Below, piece by piece: positions 653 to 16,274 of a stretch of 40,558 nucleotides of DNA (positions within the stretch are counted from its first letter, which is position 1; each line of letters starts with the position of its first letter). The notes below the pieces were generated by a model. It had not been told where the DNA came from and did no database searches. It worked only from the letters and a program-made list of their open reading frames with translations. Made by a program: the position numbers and the translations under genes. Source of the DNA: an uncultured Reyranella sp. (GTDB taxonomy: Bacteria > Pseudomonadota > Alphaproteobacteria > Reyranellales > Reyranellaceae); the NCBI GenBank assembly GCA_937915145.1, contig CALDNT010000020.1, positions 1 through 40,558 of the forward strand, written 5' to 3'.

Positions 653-1566
653 TGGCCCGCGTCGCGCTGCCCGATGTCGGCGCCCGCCAGCTCGAGGCGG
701 TGCTGGCGCTGGCCGAATACGGCAGCTTCGTCGCCGCCGCGGCGCGCCTCAGGATTTCCCAGCCGGCGCTGACCCGCATGCTGAAGCGGCTTGAGTCACA
801 GCTCGGCGTGCGGCTGTTCGAGCGCAGCACGCGGCGGGTCCAGATCACCGCGGCGGGACGCGAGTTCGCAGCCGTTGCCGAGCGCATGCTGAACGATCTC
901 GGCATCACGGTGCAAAGCGTGCGTGAAGTGGCGCAGGAACGGCGCGGTCTCGTGGTGATCTCGTGTGTCATGTCGGTCGCGGTCGGCCGGTTGCCGCGGA
1001 TGATCGCCACCTATCGCGGCGACCGGCCGGGCGTCGAGATCCATGTGCGCGAGGGCGTGTATGCCTCGATCCTCGACGATGTGCGCAGCGGCGTCGCCGA
1101 TTTCGGCATCAGCTATGTCGATGAGCTGCCCGACTTCGCGGTCGGAACCGCCCTGGGCCGCGAGACCTTCCATGCCGTCGTGCCGGCCCGCCACAAGCTT
1201 GCCGGCAGGCGCAGCGTCAGCCTTGCCGAGCTTGCCGCGCATCCGATCGTCGCCCTGCCGACCGAGTCGCGCACGCGCCGCACGGTCGATGCGGCGGCCG
1301 TGACGGCGGGCCTGCAACTTCGCCAGAGGGTGGTGGTGAACCAGATCGCCACTCTTCTGGCCCTGGTCGGCGCCGGCGTCGGCGTCGGGGTCGTGCCGGG
1401 AGGCGCCACCCGCGGGCCGCTGGTCCGCGGACTGCGTTTCATTCCGTTGGCCGAGCCGAAGCTGGTGCGCCGCCTCGGCCTGATCACGCTCCGCGAACGC
1501 GAACCGACGCCCGTCGCGTCAGGTTTCATGGCGTTGTTGCGCCGCGACTGGCCGAGATCGGATTGA
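652..1566 (+). CDS. LysR-family transcriptional regulator
   Basis: This is a 304-residue protein, the usual LysR length. Residues about 10-69 form the winged helix-turn-helix, with A-A-A-R-L-R-I-S-Q-P-A-L-T-R as the recognition part and the typical L-E-x-x-L-G-x-x-L-F-x-R-x-x-R. The remainder is the effector-binding domain. I chose ATG 652 because it overlaps the upstream stop (TGATG) and puts the HTH at the expected place; an in-frame extension to 598 would run inside the upstream gene. LysR proteins usually act as effector-responsive activators of neighbouring genes. Here the next gene downstream is the UGSC-partner gene only 45 bases away on the same strand, so this regulator is a candidate controller of the selenoprotein module or of the upstream oxygenase. 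The effector is unknown. Confidence 0.92.
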   Translation: MARVALPDVGARQLEAVLALAEYGSFVAAAARLRISQPALTRMLKRLESQLGVRLFERSTRRVQITAAGREFAAVAERMLNDLGITVQSVREVAQERRGLVVISCVMSVAVGRLPRMIATYRGDRPGVEIHVREGVYASILDDVRSGVADFGISYVDELPDFAVGTALGRETFHAVVPARHKLAGRRSVSLAELAAHPIVALPTESRTRRTVDAAAVTAGLQLRQRVVVNQIATLLALVGAGVGVGVVPGGATRGPLVRGLRFIPLAEPKLVRRLGLITLREREPTPVASGFMALLRRDWPRSD

Positions 1567-1611
1567 TGCGGATCGTGCAACAATCTCGTCTATCAGGTTG
1601 ATCTTGGCATA

Positions 1612-2703
1612 GTGGCGGAGACGGCTATTCTGGCCGTGGAGGAAATCGTGCAACTGGCATCCAGGACCTACGACGCAAACGACATCTCGGCGGTTCAGGA
1701 GCTGTATCACAGCAGCGGCTGGACCGATGGTCTGCCGATCGTGCCGCCGACGGCCGAGGCCGTCGAAGCCTGTCTCGAGTGGGCGATGATGCCGCCGGAC
1801 CAGTTGATCGGCATCGAGCCGGTGCGCGGGCTGGCGATCACCGCCGAAAAGCTGGCGATCAATGCCGTGATGGCGGGTTGCCTGCCGATGCATTTTCCGG
1901 TCGTGCTGACGGCCTGGACCGCGATGATGCAGGACGAGTTCCTGATGCACGGTGCCACGGCCAGCACCGGCGGTTGCGCCGTCCTGGTGGTGCTCAATGG
2001 TCCGATCCGGCTGGAGCTGGGCGCCAGCGGCACATTCAATGCGCTGGGCAACAGCGACCGCGCCACGGCCGTCATCGGACGTGCGATCCGGCTCTGCCTG
2101 ATCAATCTCATGGATGTACGTCCGGGCGTCATCGACCGCTCGACGCTGGGCCATCCCGGCAAGTTCAGCTTTTGCCTGGCCGAGGATGAGGAGGATTCGG
2201 CCTGGTTGCCGCTGCACGAGCAGCGCGGCATCGAGCGGGCGGCATCGGCTGTTACGGTGATGGCGGCCGGCGCGCCGCGCCAGATCATGAATGAATGGAC
2301 GACCAGGCCCGAAGAGATTCTCGAGACTTTCGCCGCCGAGATGCGCGCCAACCTGCGGCACTACTCGATCTATCCCGGCAACTACGCCATCATCATTCCC
2401 AAGCAGTTGCGTGAGCATCTGCAGGCCGCGGGATGGACCAAGACCGACATCGCCGCTTTCATCCACGAGCGGGCGCGCATTCACCGCCGCGAATGGGCCG
2501 AGGTCGGCAAGGGTGCGGTCGTGCGCGACCGCGGCGACAGCGTCTATCCGGCGATGGAGCGGCCCGACCAGCTTCTGGTGATCGCGGCCGGCGGGCCGGC
2601 CGGCGGCTTCGGCGCGATCGTGCCGCCATGGCTCGGCCACAAGAGCCGTGCCGTGACCCTGGCGGTCGGCGCCTGTGTCGATTGCGAACCCCCCAAGAAG
2701 TGA
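1612..2703 (+). CDS. Conserved protein of unknown function, UGSC-selenoprotein partner
   Basis: The 363-residue protein has no signal peptide or membrane segment. Conserved-looking blocks are G-W-T-D-G-L-P-I-V-P-P-T (about 36-47), A-I-N-A-V-M-A-G-C (Cys90) and a G-H-P-G-K-F-S-F-C-L-A-E-D-E-E stretch (about 170-184, Cys178). I recall this type of protein beside UGSC-type (seleno)proteins in other bacteria, but I cannot name its reaction. The gene ends 10 bases before the selenoprotein start, so the two are almost certainly one transcript and may form a complex. Cys90, Cys122 and Cys178 are candidate redox or thioester residues. The start is uncertain: GTG 1612 has little Shine-Dalgarno, whereas GTG 1648 follows GGAGGA at 1638-1643. 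The frame is firm, the function is not known. Confidence 0.85.
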   Translation: MAETAILAVEEIVQLASRTYDANDISAVQELYHSSGWTDGLPIVPPTAEAVEACLEWAMMPPDQLIGIEPVRGLAITAEKLAINAVMAGCLPMHFPVVLTAWTAMMQDEFLMHGATASTGGCAVLVVLNGPIRLELGASGTFNALGNSDRATAVIGRAIRLCLINLMDVRPGVIDRSTLGHPGKFSFCLAEDEEDSAWLPLHEQRGIERAASAVTVMAAGAPRQIMNEWTTRPEEILETFAAEMRANLRHYSIYPGNYAIIIPKQLREHLQAAGWTKTDIAAFIHERARIHRREWAEVGKGAVVRDRGDSVYPAMERPDQLLVIAAGGPAGGFGAIVPPWLGHKSRAVTLAVGACVDCEPPKK

Positions 2704-2713
2704 GGACCCCGCC

Positions 2714-3238
2714 ATGACCTTCCGTGTTCTCGATCCGACCGCCGAGAAGGCGCCGCCCGCCGGCAAGGCGGCACCGCGGCTCGCCTCGCTCGAAGGCAAG
2801 ACCATCGGGTTCATTTCCAACGGCAAGGAGGGAACCAAGGGGTTCTTTCGCCATCTCGACCGCATGCTGCGCGAGGAGCATGGCGTCGCCAAGGTCGTGA
2901 GCCGGACCAAGTCGAACTACAGTGCGCCGGCCGATGCCGGCATCGTGGCCGAGATCAAGAGCTGGGATGCTGTCGTCTCCGGCATTGGAGATTGAGGAAG
3001 CTGTTCATCATGCAGTCTGCATGACTCAGTGACAGCCGAACGCCTCGGCGTTCCCGCCTTCAGCGTGATGACCACCCGGTTCGTGAGTGCCGCCGAGATG
3101 ATGGGCCGCGTGCTCGGCATGCCGGACCATCCGTTCGCCACCATCGGCCATCCGGTCAGCAGCGCCACCGATGACGACCTGCGCGCCATGGCTGCGGCGG
3201 CGATCGACCAGGGCCGGCGGTTTCTGCTCCGGCCCTGA
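2714..3238 (+). CDS. UGSC-family selenoprotein (in-frame UGA read as selenocysteine)
   Basis: Read through the TGA at 2993-2995, this is one 174-residue protein; without readthrough it would stop at 93 residues. Residue 94 is the predicted selenocysteine in G-I-G-D-U-G-S-C-S-S-C, with Cys97 and Cys100 as partners. The frame is open on both sides of the TGA. Protein-like sequence continues after it: H-D at 103-104, then G-V-P-A-F-S-V-M-T-T, a G-M-P-D stretch and G-H-P-V. This layout resembles the C-terminal domain of glycine-reductase GrdB-type selenoproteins (U-x-x-C, then A-G-I-P, then H-P), so a redox role through a selenenyl sulfide between Sec94 and Cys97 is likely; this is inference. ATG 2714 follows GAGGA at 2702-2706. 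A hairpin fit for SelB lies just after the TGA. selA/B/C/D are not in the window and must be elsewhere. Confidence 0.92.
2993..3036 (+). promoter_or_regulatory. Bacterial SECIS element downstream of the selenocysteine UGA
   Basis: After the UGA (2993-2995), bases 3008-3014 (TCATGCA) pair perfectly with 3018-3024 (TGCATGA) around a GTC tip. A lower helix of 3000-3004 (GCTGT) with 3032-3036 (ACAGC) encloses it with asymmetric internal bulges. The tip starts 19 bases after the UGA, inside the usual window for bacterial SECIS. The apical GCAGTCTGC nearly matches the GCAGGTCTGC tip of the E. coli fdhF element bound by SelB. The segment drops to about half G+C by my count and uses TCA, TCA, AGT and TCA for serine, consistent with codon choice bent to preserve RNA structure. 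Confidence 0.88.
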
Positions 3239-3911: not shown

Positions 3912-4256
3912 TTAGGGCAGGTCCAGCCGCACCGCGACGGCGGCGCTGGCGATCACCGCGACGTCGTTGCCTTCCTGGTCGGGCACGTCGAGTCCGCCCT
4001 TGACCGCCGTCACCGTGACGATGCCGTGCGGCAGCGAGGCCTTGACCTTTTCGAGGTCGACCTTGTCGGGTTGCTGCACGCCGATGGTGACATCGACGAA
4101 CATGCCGGTCTTGGAGTTGACCCCGAGCGTGCGGATCATGGCGAGCGAGCTGTGGTGCAGGGCGTCCTGGACCGCGCGGAGGGCGGCCTTGGTGTAGTCG
4201 CCGCCGTGCAGGTCGTTGCCGGTACCGAGTTCGAGGATGACGCGTCTGGCGGTCAT
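3912..4256 (-). CDS. Lin0512 family protein, copy 1
   Basis: This 114-residue cytosolic protein belongs to the Lin0512 family of small proteins with no assigned biochemical function. Family-like features are the E-L-G-T-G-N-D-L-H-G-G-D-Y-T-K-A-A start, the D-A-L-H-H-S-S helix and the L-P-H-G stretch near residue 76. A longer frame upstream reads through the neighbouring copy and is not real; ATG 4256 gives a protein matching its paralogue end to end. It lies 14 bases after copy 2 (4271-4609), so the two are translated in tandem and probably form a hetero-oligomer or act on the same ligand. That pairing is inference. Confidence 0.85.
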   Translation of the reverse strand: MTARRVILELGTGNDLHGGDYTKAALRAVQDALHHSSLAMIRTLGVNSKTGMFVDVTIGVQQPDKVDLEKVKASLPHGIVTVTAVKGGLDVPDQEGNDVAVIASAAVAVRLDLP

Positions 4257-4270
4257 GCTGTGTGCTCCGC

Positions 4271-4609
4271 TCAAATATCGAGCCGGACGATGGCGGCCGC
4301 CTGGGCGATCACCGTCTTGTCCGTGCCGGCTTCGTTGGCGATTTCCAGCCCGCCCTCGACCACGCTCACCGTGCCGGTGCCGTGCGGCAGCACCGCCAGC
4401 ACCTGGGCCTTGTCGACCTCGGCCGGCCGCGGCACGCCGATCAGCACTTCCACCCGCATGTCGTCGCTCGACTTGCCGAGCGCCGTGGCGACGGTCAGCG
4501 AGTTGTGCCACAGCGCGTCCTTCAAGGCGCGTACCGCGGCCTTGGTGTAGTCGCCGCCGCGGATGTCGGTGCCCATGCCGATCTCGAGGGCCAGACGTTT
4601 CAGTGCCAT
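4271..4609 (-). CDS. Lin0512 family protein, copy 2
   Basis: The 112-residue paralogue of the next gene downstream shares the blueprint G-x-G-T-D-x-x-G-G-D-Y-T-K-A-A, D-A-L-x-H-x-S and L-P-H-G-x-x-T-V. The two copies differ widely in the middle, so the duplication is not recent. ATG 4609 starts five bases after the DoxX stop, indicating translational coupling. Members are often found as adjacent pairs, to my recollection; the molecular role of the family remains open. The sequence shows no secretion signal. Confidence 0.85.
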   Translation of the reverse strand: MALKRLALEIGMGTDIRGGDYTKAAVRALKDALWHNSLTVATALGKSSDDMRVEVLIGVPRPAEVDKAQVLAVLPHGTGTVSVVEGGLEIANEAGTDKTVIAQAAAIVRLDI

Positions 4610-4614
4610 TGCCA

Positions 4615-5013
4615 CTACCTCTTGCGCATCGCGTCGTAGCTCCACGGGCCGGGTCCGGCGGCGGCGATATAGAGGAAGACGAAGCAATAGAGCGCCGCCA
4701 ATTCGCCGGCATTGAGGATCGGAAAGAAGCCGCGCGGCGCGTGGGCGAGGAAGTAGGCGACGGCCATCAGGCCCGACAGCACGAACGCCGTCGTGCGCGT
4801 GAACAGGCCGAGGATCAGCAGCACGCCGCCCACGATCTCGATCACCCCGGCGGCGCCCAGCAGCGACACCGGCTCGAGCTTGGAGAACATCGGCACCGAC
4901 GGAAACTTCAGGTGCTTGGCGGTGCCGTGCTGCAGGAACAGCAGGCCCGCCATGATGCGCAGCACACTGAGCAGCCGTGGCGCCCATGTTGCAGCGATTG
5001 CGTCGAAGTTCAT
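4615..5013 (-). CDS. DoxX family membrane protein
   Basis: This 132-residue inner-membrane protein has about four hydrophobic helices. The DoxX hallmark is present: R-I-M-A-G-L-L-F-L-Q-H-G-T-A-K in the first helix, then G-x-x-E-I-V-G-G-x-x-L-x-L-G-L-F-T-R in the second and third. DoxX proteins relate to the small subunit of thiosulfate:quinone oxidoreductase, but most, this one probably included, have no proven reaction. It opens a three-gene unit with the two Lin0512 genes. The start at ATG 5013 fits the family length. Confidence 0.9.
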   Translation of the reverse strand: MNFDAIAATWAPRLLSVLRIMAGLLFLQHGTAKHLKFPSVPMFSKLEPVSLLGAAGVIEIVGGVLLILGLFTRTTAFVLSGLMAVAYFLAHAPRGFFPILNAGELAALYCFVFLYIAAAGPGPWSYDAMRKR

Positions 5014-14957: not shown

Positions 14958-16274
14958 ATGAAACTTCGTTGGTTATCGATTTTTCTCGTTGCCGCGCTGG
15001 GTGCGGCGGCGCCGGCAGTGGCCCAGGTCCCGCCGATCCCGCCGGGCTGGCAGATGGAGCGGGTCATTCTGCTCGCCCGTCACGATGTGCGGGCGCCGGA
15101 CCAGTCGCCCGAGGAACTCGCCAGGTTCGCGGCCTCGCCGTGGCCCGCCTGGCCGGTGGCGCCCGGTGACGTGACGCCGCGTGGTATCGAGCTCGGCCGC
15201 CAGATGGGCCAGTTCTATCGGCTGACCTATGGCGGCCGCGGCCTGATCCAGGCCGACGACTGTCCCGCCCCGGGCATCGTCGTCATATGGGTCGACCTCG
15301 ACAAGCGCACCGAGTATGCGGCGCTGTCGACGCAGGGCGGCCCCTACCTGCGCTGCATCAACCCGATCCTCAAGCACCAGACCGACCTCTCGAAGCCGGA
15401 TCCGCTGTTCCATCCCGCGCCGTCGGCTGCCTGTCCGATGGATGCGGCGGCCAACCGGGACGCGATCCTGGCGCGGATCGGCGGCGACTTCAGTTCGGTG
15501 CTGCGCGAGTATGCGCCGCAGCTTTCGAAACTGCAGGCAACACTCTGCCCGCCCGGCGCGTCGCCCGGCGGCAAGGCTTGCGGTCTCGCCGTCGAGGCGC
15601 CCGCCATCGTGCCCGATCCGCGCGGTGGCGTGATGATGAAGGGGCCGATCGCCATCGGTTCGATGGCGGCAGAACTCTTCCTGACCGAGAGCGCCGAGGG
15701 TTTGCCCGCCGACCAGGTCGCGTGGGGACGCCTCGCAGACAACGCGGCGATCCTCGACGTGATGAAAGTTCATCGGCTGTATGGCGACCTGATGGAGAAG
15801 ACGCGGCAGATCGCCCGGCAGAAGGGATCGAACATGCTGGCCCAGATCGTGGCCGCGCTGCAGGACGGCCACGACTTCCCCGGCGCGCCCGACATCGCCC
15901 AGCCGGTGCGTTTCGGCATGCTGATCGGCCACGATACCAACATCCTCAATGTCGCGGGTCTGCTCAATCTCGGCTGGAAGCTTACGGGCTTCCAGGAAAA
16001 CACTGCACCGCCCGGCAGCGCGCTGGCCTTCGAGTTGTTGAAGGAAGTCCGCACCGGACAGCGTTACGTGCGGCTGGCCTACTACGCCCAGACGTCGGAG
16101 CAGATGCGCCAGGCGACGCGGCTCGATCTGGACCATCTGCCCGACATGGTGGCGGTCCCGCTGGCGGCCTGCAGCGGCCAGGAAACCAACAACGCCTGCC
16201 CGCTGGAGCGCTTCGTCGAGATCGCCAAGACGGCGATCGATCCGGACTGCGTGACGATCGGCAAGCTGCGGTGA
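14958..16274 (+). CDS. Secreted histidine acid phosphatase-like protein
   Basis: The 438-residue protein has a signal peptide (K-L-R-W, hydrophobic core, A-V-A-Q cut near residue 23). The branch-2 histidine phosphatase signature R-H-x-x-R-x-P is at R41-H42-D43-V44-R45-A46-P47, and the partner H-D at H325-D326 in L-I-G-H-D-T-N. These match periplasmic glucose-1-phosphatase/phytase-type enzymes that release phosphate. The longer in-frame extension is excluded because the signal peptide starts at ATG 14958. The stop overlaps the rpiB start (GTGA), so the phosphatase and the sugar-phosphate isomerase are translationally coupled, although one acts outside and the other inside the cytoplasm. Confidence 0.9.
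   Translation: MKLRWLSIFLVAALGAAAPAVAQVPPIPPGWQMERVILLARHDVRAPDQSPEELARFAASPWPAWPVAPGDVTPRGIELGRQMGQFYRLTYGGRGLIQADDCPAPGIVVIWVDLDKRTEYAALSTQGGPYLRCINPILKHQTDLSKPDPLFHPAPSAACPMDAAANRDAILARIGGDFSSVLREYAPQLSKLQATLCPPGASPGGKACGLAVEAPAIVPDPRGGVMMKGPIAIGSMAAELFLTESAEGLPADQVAWGRLADNAAILDVMKVHRLYGDLMEKTRQIARQKGSNMLAQIVAALQDGHDFPGAPDIAQPVRFGMLIGHDTNILNVAGLLNLGWKLTGFQENTAPPGSALAFELLKEVRTGQRYVRLAYYAQTSEQMRQATRLDLDHLPDMVAVPLAACSGQETNNACPLERFVEIAKTAIDPDCVTIGKLR

What the first reader, a model, noticed from the sequence alone, without database searches (positions are those of the whole stretch)
2714..3238. UGSC-type selenoprotein hidden by an in-frame UGA
The sequence directly shows one open frame split only by TGA 2993-2995, with G-I-G-D before it and G-S-C-S-S-C after it, followed by about 80 residues of coherent sequence in the same frame. 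The U-x-x-C ... G-V-P ... H-P layout is like the GrdB-type C-terminal domain (established family pattern), and the core matches UGSC-type (seleno)proteins. Standard gene calling would report a 93-residue protein plus a 69-residue fragment, or a pseudogene. Function is unknown.
Basis: partly seen in the sequence, partly recalled or inferred. Interest (0 to 1): 0.96.

Follow-up and report, generated by a model that had tools for sequence, protein, structure and literature searches.

The report
Known selenoprotein with an unnamed partner
A bacterial gene that ordinary annotation would cut in two at a stop codon very probably encodes a selenium-containing protein of a known but functionally uncharacterised family, and in the genomes examined it nearly always sits beside the same unnamed partner gene, which makes its function testable.

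Summary
Window 2714-3238 is one gene with a single in-frame UGA at 2993-2995; the finding holds. Read through, the protein matches Pfam PF24696 (UGSC) across the UGA, E=1.1e-47. The genome has selA, selB and a UCA-anticodon tRNA-Sec in one cluster, plus selD, and four UGSC copies, each with one TGA. Cys homologues exist. A bSECIS-type hairpin (3008-3024) follows the UGA. In loci not used to define it, 20 of 20 TGA members have such a hairpin and 0 of 4 Cys members do. So this is a new member of a known family of unknown function.

What goes further: the gene just upstream (1612-2703), with no Pfam, NCBIfam or PDB sequence match, belongs to a family lying beside UGSC at 128 of 140 places in related genomes and 24 of 24 in another phylum, and fused to it in three loci. 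UGSC is predicted as a Rossmann/flavodoxin-like fold, and its Sec aligns with that of PrdB/GrdB-type reductases. Some modules carry a thioredoxin-reductase-like gene. Best mechanism (inferred): a two-component, Sec-dependent reductase; substrate unknown.

The parts
2714..3238 (+). UGSC-family selenoprotein gene, 174 codons with Sec at 94, stop TGA 3236-3238
2993..2995 (+). Sec codon (UGA), first residue of the U-G-S-C motif
   Evidence: TGA in 46 and TGC in 13 of 59 family members with a readable motif; TGA in 20 and a Cys codon in 4 of 24 members from the phylum of G458
3008..3024 (+). predicted bacterial SECIS hairpin: 7 bp UCAUGCA / UGCAUGA, loop GUC 3015-3017, 19 nt between UGA and loop
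   Evidence: meets the loop, stem, G and spacing rules of the bSECIS model quoted in PMC13188914; energy of the bare hairpin, -7.4 kcal/mol, is just short of the model's limit of -7.5
2702..2706 (+). Shine-Dalgarno-like GAGGA, overlapping the stop codon of the upstream gene
   Evidence: read directly
1612..2703 (+). partner gene P0002, 363 aa, unnamed family (no Pfam, NCBIfam or PDB sequence match); 10 nt lie between its stop and the UGSC start
   Evidence: the family is fused to a UGSC domain in L055, L056 and L057
598..1566 (+). LysR-type regulator, same strand, 45 nt before the partner gene
   Evidence: a LysR gene also lies near the UGSC module in L070, L072 and L074

Best explanation
Window 2714-3238 encodes a UGSC-family selenoprotein. 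UGA 2993-2995 is decoded as selenocysteine by the genome's own SelA/SelB/SelC/SelD, directed by the hairpin at 3008-3024. The protein is one half of a two-gene module: the gene just upstream (1612-2703) encodes its partner subunit. Shown by sequence: the frame, the family, the Sec machinery, the hairpin and its link to TGA rather than to Cys codons, and the pairing or fusion with the partner at nearly every place examined. Inferred: Sec94 and Cys97 form a selenenylsulfide redox pair at the start of a helix in a Rossmann/flavodoxin-like domain; electrons come from NAD(P)H through a thioredoxin-reductase-like flavoprotein (encoded beside some modules) or the general thioredoxin system; the partner holds the substrate, which Sec attacks and cleaves reductively as PrdB/GrdB do in proline and glycine reductase. 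I put the selenoprotein reading at about 0.97, the two-subunit module at about 0.85, and the PrdB-like reductive chemistry at about 0.4. The substrate is unknown; CoA-transferase, acyl-CoA dehydrogenase and Liv-type transporter genes near some modules suggest an organic or amino acid.
For: Family match across the UGA. Sec machinery complete. 138 of 140 UGSC places in 38 genomes hold one TGA. Cys homologues in named genomes. Hairpin: of 46 TGA members 32 form all 7 pairs, 11 form 6, and 43 have a loop starting GU; of 13 Cys members 1 forms all 7 and 0 have a loop starting GU. The three TGA members outside that register (in L056, L057, L071) fold a different hairpin at nearly the same place. Covariation score 0.159, shuffles 0.078, 0 of 500 as high. 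Loci not used to define it: 20 of 20 TGA against 0 of 4 Cys. A both-side change C-G to G-C in the SSW paralogues goes with Cys to Trp and Leu to Phe. Purifying selection after the TGA. Partner: present in exactly the same 38 of 61 genomes as UGSC; within 207 nt on the same strand at 128 of 140 places and within 150 nt at 24 of 24 in another phylum; in 35 of 35 longer stretches, 20 of which cover places of that 24 and 15 do not; fused in L055, L056, L057. Profile link to PrdB-like proteins with Sec on Sec. TrxR-like gene with CxxC in 8 of 28 stretches and a TrxR-like gene in 2 of 35.
Against: No experiment shows Sec in the protein. The NCBIfam equivalog cut-off is not met (116.6 against 125). 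Three of 38 UGSC genomes show no selA; of these G018 has a full selB, but G019 and G048 (89% and 77% complete) show no selB above cut-off. The selA/UGSC link is nearly all one genus: outside it 0 of 1 UGSC genomes has selA and 2 selA genomes lack UGSC. RNAalifold on all 34 distinct TGA sequences gave no pair; it gave the hairpin only after 3 differently placed ones were removed. Random synonymous recoding reaches the observed pairing in about 5-16% of draws for a single sequence in the common register, so one sequence alone proves little and orthologues are not independent. Cys members also pair more than recoding predicts (mean 5.1 of 7 against 3.9), and one, in L079, keeps all 7 pairs. The folded 61-nt stretch is no more stable than shuffles, z 0.12. 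No TrxR-like gene was found in 20 of 28 and 33 of 35 stretches, the first 9 kb of the window among them. The hhalign E-value is for one comparison, not a database.
Confidence: 0.88

Rival explanations
1. Pseudogene or sequencing error: the TGA is a nonsense mutation and the two halves are decaying.
For: Standard gene calling would report two fragments. A copy that looks decayed exists elsewhere: L081 (G334) has an in-frame TGA away from the Sec site, a TGC at the Sec site, and no selB above cut-off in its genome.
Against: TGA at the same codon in 46 of 59 family members with a readable motif and in 20 of 24 in another phylum; purifying selection after the TGA; the hairpin goes with TGA, not with Cys codons.
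Confidence: 0.01
2. UGSC is a general thiol/selenol oxidoreductase (peroxidase or disulfide reductase of the thioredoxin-fold kind, as the 2008 GOS paper supposed) and the partner is its dedicated redox client or carrier.
For: UxxC motif; TrxR-like flavoproteins beside some modules; [quoted passage not shown]
Against: The confident model (pLDDT 92.1) has order b-a-b-a-b-a-b-a-b-a with the UxxC at the start of the third helix; the best structural matches are Rossmann/flavodoxin/receiver-like and none of the 50 rows shown is a thioredoxin, though an unlisted fold is not excluded. A general oxidoreductase would not need so constant a partner.
Confidence: 0.3
3. The module is sensory or regulatory (redox or selenium status signalled to LysR), not metabolic.
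For: LysR gene immediately upstream in the window and near UGSC in L070, L072, L074.
Against: Four diverged paralogues in the genome, and acyl-CoA, CoA-transferase and transporter genes near some modules, fit metabolism better. Pfam was run only on chosen neighbours, so how many modules have a LysR gene was not counted.
Confidence: 0.08
4. The partner is a maturation or chaperone factor for UGSC, not a catalytic subunit.
For: Constant pairing; no recognisable enzyme family.
Against: The partner has invariant D, R, E and G and nearly invariant Cys positions, is fused to UGSC in three loci, and occurs in two diverged copies beside one UGSC (L052, L058, L066, L068), which suits substrate-binding subunits better.
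Confidence: 0.15

Closest known systems
UGSC family (Pfam PF24696; NCBIfam NF041046 'UGSC family (seleno)protein')
   Same: Full-length match across the Sec site, U-G-S-C motif, G-V-P, H-P; family has both Sec and Cys members.
   Different: Scores below the NCBIfam equivalog cut-off (116.6 against 125, with Cys in place of Sec). The paper passages that I saw give no function.
PrdB / GrdB selenoprotein reductases (Pfam PF07355, TIGR04483, TIGR01918)
   Same: Sec in UxxC, followed by G-I/V-P; profile match of 72 columns with Sec on Sec, 71.5%. The same genome has three PrdB-like genes with TGA at that codon.
   Different: Only the stretch around the Sec site is matched; no hit of P0001 to PF07355 at E up to 10; the partner P0002 matches no Pfam family, thus none of those of the PrdA/GrdE subunits (that those subunits are the PrdB/GrdB partners is recalled).
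'Unknown_1' domain fused to UGSC (Figure S1A of PMC2398784)
   Same: A conserved domain fused to UGSC, reported in 2008 (passages); probably the family I call the partner.
   Different: The figure is not held, so identity of the two was not tested. The passages report a fusion; here the family is mostly a separate neighbouring gene.
UGSC-motif selenoproteins of Geodermatophilaceae with tRNA-Sec of anticodon CUA (passage of PMC5330540)
   Same: Same kind of protein by name.
   Different: There the Sec codon is UAG; here it is UGA with a UCA-anticodon tRNA-Sec.

Membership tests
UGSC family (PF24696) | Score above Pfam's curated cut-off over the whole domain | tested here: met
   162.8 bits against 25, profile 1-169 of 172
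UGSC family (NF041046, equivalog) | Score above NCBI's curated cut-off of 125 bits | tested here: not met
   116.6 bits, profile 1-141 of 147, with C in place of U
Selenoprotein decoded by bacterial Sec machinery | selA, selB, selC, selD in the genome | tested here: met
[quoted passage not shown]
   loop GUC, 7 bp, 19 nt
Selenoprotein decoded by bacterial Sec machinery | bSECIS energy of at most -7.5 kcal/mol (same model) | tested here: inconclusive
   -7.4 for the 23-nt hairpin, -14.9 for 61 nt; the passage does not say over what length
Selenoprotein decoded by bacterial Sec machinery | Selenium in the protein | not testable with these tools
   needs 75Se labelling or mass spectrometry
PrdB/GrdB (PF07355) | Pfam match | tested here: not met
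   only PF24696 is listed for P0001 at E up to 10 (HMMER's filters drop most weak matches)
PrdB/GrdB (PF07355) | Homology of the Sec domain with Sec aligned on Sec | tested here: inconclusive
   hhalign 71.5%, E 3.6e-5 for one comparison; control A4 against A3 0.15%
Thioredoxin-fold selenoprotein (as supposed in PMC2398784) | Thioredoxin fold | tested here: inconclusive
   model order and top matches are Rossmann/flavodoxin-like; a family that is not listed is not excluded

The most novel reading that the evidence does not exclude
UGSC and its unnamed partner form a new class of two-subunit selenoenzyme: a PrdB-like Sec domain that has swapped the pyruvoyl subunit of classical Stickland reductases for an unrelated partner, carries out Sec-dependent reductive cleavage in Sec-using lineages of at least two phyla, and has diversified into several paralogous modules per genome, each with its own partner and presumably its own substrate.
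Probability: 0.3. Interest if true: 0.75.

Novelty: new member of a known kind. Interest (0 to 1): 0.5.

Why it matters
UGSC proteins are prominent among selenoproteins in aquatic metagenomes (8.2% of the selenoprotein genes of one marine survey, passage of PMC9402790), yet of the eight papers that hold both 'UGSC' and 'selenoprotein' in the held library the seven whose passages I saw gave no function. If the partner gene is an obligate subunit, the family can be expressed and assayed as a pair, and the thioredoxin-reductase-like genes beside some modules suggest the electron donor. The gene is also a clean example of what annotation can lose: the whole second half, including Cys97.

Tried and rejected
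Rejected: pseudogene or sequencing error (conservation, selection, hairpin); reassignment of UGA to a standard amino acid (the gene itself and its upstream neighbour end in TGA).

Led nowhere or weaker than hoped: a family search with PF25266, a wrong guess of accession. Rfam on the window: no match at the gathering scores. PDB sequence searches with P0001 and P0002: no match at E up to 10; with their profiles: best E 0.41 and 0.53. Foldseek and VIA on the partner model (pLDDT 87.6): only weak partial matches, best Z 5.7, rmsd 2.4 over 86 residues to chorismate mutase, and TM about 0.2 to fumarases and cyclic amide hydrolases, so I name no fold. UGSC model: best Z 11.3, rmsd 3.0 over 131 residues, to a chain of the methyl-coenzyme M reductase activation complex, 11.2 to a designed protein, and many Rossmann-like rows at 8-9, so I claim only the broad fold. 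RNAalifold on all 34 sequences found no pairs. The idea that Cys-type genomes lack the Sec machinery failed: 4 of 9 named genomes with a Cys copy have selB above cut-off. A fused UGSC-partner model was not run because MAFFT laid UGSC-only rows on the partner domain. The genome-contig scan was made with Cys in place of Sec, so it could find Cys forms only at the motif.

Limits and dropped rows: neighbour genes were chosen by an ORF-and-similarity script, not a gene caller, and the 11 window ORFs used for codon usage were picked by me; 3 of 62 rows without a readable motif (one of L071, L080, L081) were dropped; L080 has TGA and L081 TGC at the site. One search read 29 of the 30 loci returned, which listed 45 places; L099 was left out beforehand because it repeats L074. 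Of the 29, 27 gave a UGSC hit, and 3 of these without a readable motif (L121, L122, L123) are not in the count of 24. The profiles used there contain members of that phylum, and one TGA copy of that phylum (in L071) is among the 34 hairpin sequences; the 24 loci themselves are not; 12 of 140 places had no listed partner within 500 bp, and the partner list was cut off. Seven of the 12 are the fused form (L055, L056, L057) or look like it (four more, with the next listed partner 1.3-1.5 kb on); L032 has the partner broken over two frames; four were not looked at.

Full report
Observation. The frame 2714-3238 is open except for TGA 2993-2995, with GIGD before and GSCSSCSLHD after it. Both halves look coding in the same frame: third-position GC is 0.82 before and 0.80 after the TGA, and omega against 11 chosen orthologues is 0.11-0.30 before and 0.15-0.36 after. 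The gene follows the upstream gene by 10 nt, with GAGGA 7 nt before the ATG.

Family. Read through with Cys in place of Sec, the protein matches Pfam PF24696 (UGSC) at 162.8 bits, E 1.1e-47, residues 4-170, and NCBIfam NF041046 at 116.6 bits, below its cut-off of 125. Homologues have TGA or TGC at this codon: 46 and 13 of 59 sequences with a readable motif, the window's own copy counted. Nine Cys loci come from named genomes, among them Actinophytocola, Nonomuraea, Conexibacter and a Candidatus Binatia bacterium.

Machinery. The window's genome (98% complete, 317 contigs) has selA, selB and selC together on contig C277 and selD on C71, all above the curated cut-offs; ARAGORN gives tRNA-Sec with anticodon TCA. 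It has four UGSC copies, each with one TGA, and three PrdB-like genes that also have a TGA at the UxxC or corresponding site (L089, two in L096). That makes at least seven predicted selenoprotein genes.

Distribution. UGSC was found in 38 of 61 related genomes, among them all 37 of the genus that were searched, in 5 of 398 genomes sampled from the phylum and in 29 of 396 sampled from the phylum of G458, a Nocardioidaceae genome. selA was found in 35 of the 38. Fisher's test gives 3.6e-11, but the pattern is nearly one genus; outside it 0 of 1 UGSC genomes shows selA, and 2 selA genomes lack UGSC. Of the three exceptions, G018 has a complete selB; G019 and G048, 89% and 77% complete, show none above cut-off. 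Of nine named genomes with a Cys copy, 4 have selB above cut-off. In G368 selB lies beside the UGSC module on the same contig and strand.

Hairpin. In the window the RNA after the UGA can form UCAUGCA-GUC-UGCAUGA at 3008-3024 with 19 nt between UGA and loop. The bSECIS model quoted in a 2026 review asks for a loop of 3-9 nt with G in its first two positions, a stem of 4-16 bp, 16-37 nt spacing and at most -7.5 kcal/mol (passages of PMC13188914). The bare hairpin folds at -7.4 (z -2.27) and the 61-nt stretch at -14.9 (z 0.12). Among 46 TGA members 32 form all seven pairs at these positions, 11 form six, and 43 have a loop starting GU; among 13 Cys members 1 forms all seven and 0 have a loop starting GU. 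Against this, random synonymous recoding reaches the observed pairing in 5-16% of draws for a sequence in the common register, and Cys members average 5.1 pairs against 3.9 expected. The loop G-U comes from a Ser codon AGT, which is 13 of 253 Ser codons in the window ORFs counted. Over 34 distinct sequences 92.9% of cells pair (shuffled mean 86.9%) and the covariation score is 0.159 (shuffled 0.078, none of 500 as high; slid versions up to 0.084). Two pairs change on both sides; one of them turns C-G to G-C in paralogues where Cys becomes Trp and Leu becomes Phe, so the protein appears to follow the RNA. RNAalifold found nothing on all 34 and six pairs on the 31 in one register. The best test is the set of loci from the phylum of G458 that had no part in defining the hairpin: 20 of 20 TGA members have a compliant hairpin of at least 6 bp, 0 of 4 Cys members do.

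Partner. The gene at 1612-2703 (P0002) has no Pfam match at E up to 10, no NCBIfam match and no PDB sequence match. Its family is found in exactly the 38 of 61 genomes that have UGSC, within 207 nt on the same strand at 128 of 140 UGSC places, within 150 nt at 24 of 24 places from the phylum of G458, and in 35 of 35 longer stretches, 15 of which are places not among those 24. In L055, L056 and L057 the two are one protein. A UGSC fusion with a domain called Unknown_1 was reported in 2008 (passages of PMC2398784); the figure is not held, so I could not test that it is the same family. Some modules carry two diverged partners (L052, L058, L066, L068). Invariant or nearly invariant positions, in the numbering of alignment A3, include D38, G39, P41, C89, T118, R156, D174, C187 and E190.

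Fold and relatives. The UGSC model is confident (pLDDT 92.1) and is a Rossmann/flavodoxin-like a/b domain with Sec between the third strand and the third helix; the best structural Z is 11.3, rmsd 3.0 over 131 residues. This differs from the thioredoxin-like fold supposed in PMC2398784, though a missing thioredoxin row excludes nothing. The UGSC profile matches the PrdB-like profile over 72 columns at 71.5% with Sec on Sec and Cys97 on the second Cys of UxxC; a control gave 0.15%. The partner model (pLDDT 87.6) has only weak partial matches.

Neighbours. A thioredoxin-reductase-like flavoprotein with a CxxC lies near the module in 8 of 28 stretches (nearest solved relatives of two of them are thioredoxin reductases), and a TrxR-like gene in 2 of 35 (in L161 on the other strand about 3.8 kb away); none in the first 9 kb of the window. 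Pfam on chosen neighbours gave CoA-transferase III (L071, L127, L131, L144, L153), acyl-CoA dehydrogenase (L052, L127, L142, L154), SDR (L139, L142, L143), enoyl-CoA hydratase (L151) and Liv-type ABC transporter genes (L052, L055). LysR genes lie beside the window's module and near those of L070, L072 and L074.

Mechanism. Shown: Sec decoding is strongly supported and the pairing with the partner is near constant. Inferred: Sec94-Cys97 cycles between selenol/thiol and selenenylsulfide; a TrxR-like or general thioredoxin system reduces it; the partner presents a substrate for Sec-dependent reductive cleavage, by analogy with PrdB and GrdB. I give this chemistry about 0.4.

Novelty. The family is known: eight papers in the held library hold both UGSC and selenoprotein; I saw passages of seven, not PMC7435645. 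None of those passages gives a function, and the 2026 review says that functions of the group that includes UGSC remain largely uncharacterised. A search for the single word UGSC gave 15 papers, the other seven unrelated by title. What seems new here, within those searches, is the partner family as a nearly constant neighbour, the fold and PrdB link, and the codon-level coupling of protein to hairpin.

Noticed in passing
L089:1441-2400 (+) and L096:211-1119, 1150-1965 (-), own genome contigs C256 and C114: Three PrdB-like genes with an in-frame TGA (ILVPV-U-PAC, ILVPV-U-PVCHQ, FVAIPA-U-PLDHQ), all below the TIGR04483 cut-off. The two in L096 are 30 nt apart on one strand, possibly two halves of one enzyme.
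   Followed up: partly
L054:3077-3173 with selB match C277:3277-5124: selC lies just beyond the selB match on the same strand, and the selB open frame (728 aa) is longer than the match; selC may overlap selB, as the 2026 review says of some lineages such as Alphaproteobacteria.
   Followed up: no
window 15813-15907 (-): ARAGORN calls a 95-nt tRNA-His inside long open frames; its length is unusual for tRNA-His and it is probably a false call.
   Followed up: no
window 3915-4712 (-): Lin0512-family gene (conserved, unknown function), also near the UGSC locus L067.
   Followed up: no
L071:10674-11186 and L123: UGSC-like domains without the UGSC motif at the active site (MCDTGVS, LGDMGTS), possible catalytically dead paralogues.
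   Followed up: no
L121, L122: TGA-type relatives with altered motifs (N-U-G-G-C and G-U-D-G-C), so the family's motif is wider than UGSC.
   Followed up: no
L081 (G334): A UGSC relative with Cys at the site and an in-frame TGA elsewhere, in a genome without selB above cut-off: probably decaying.
   Followed up: partly
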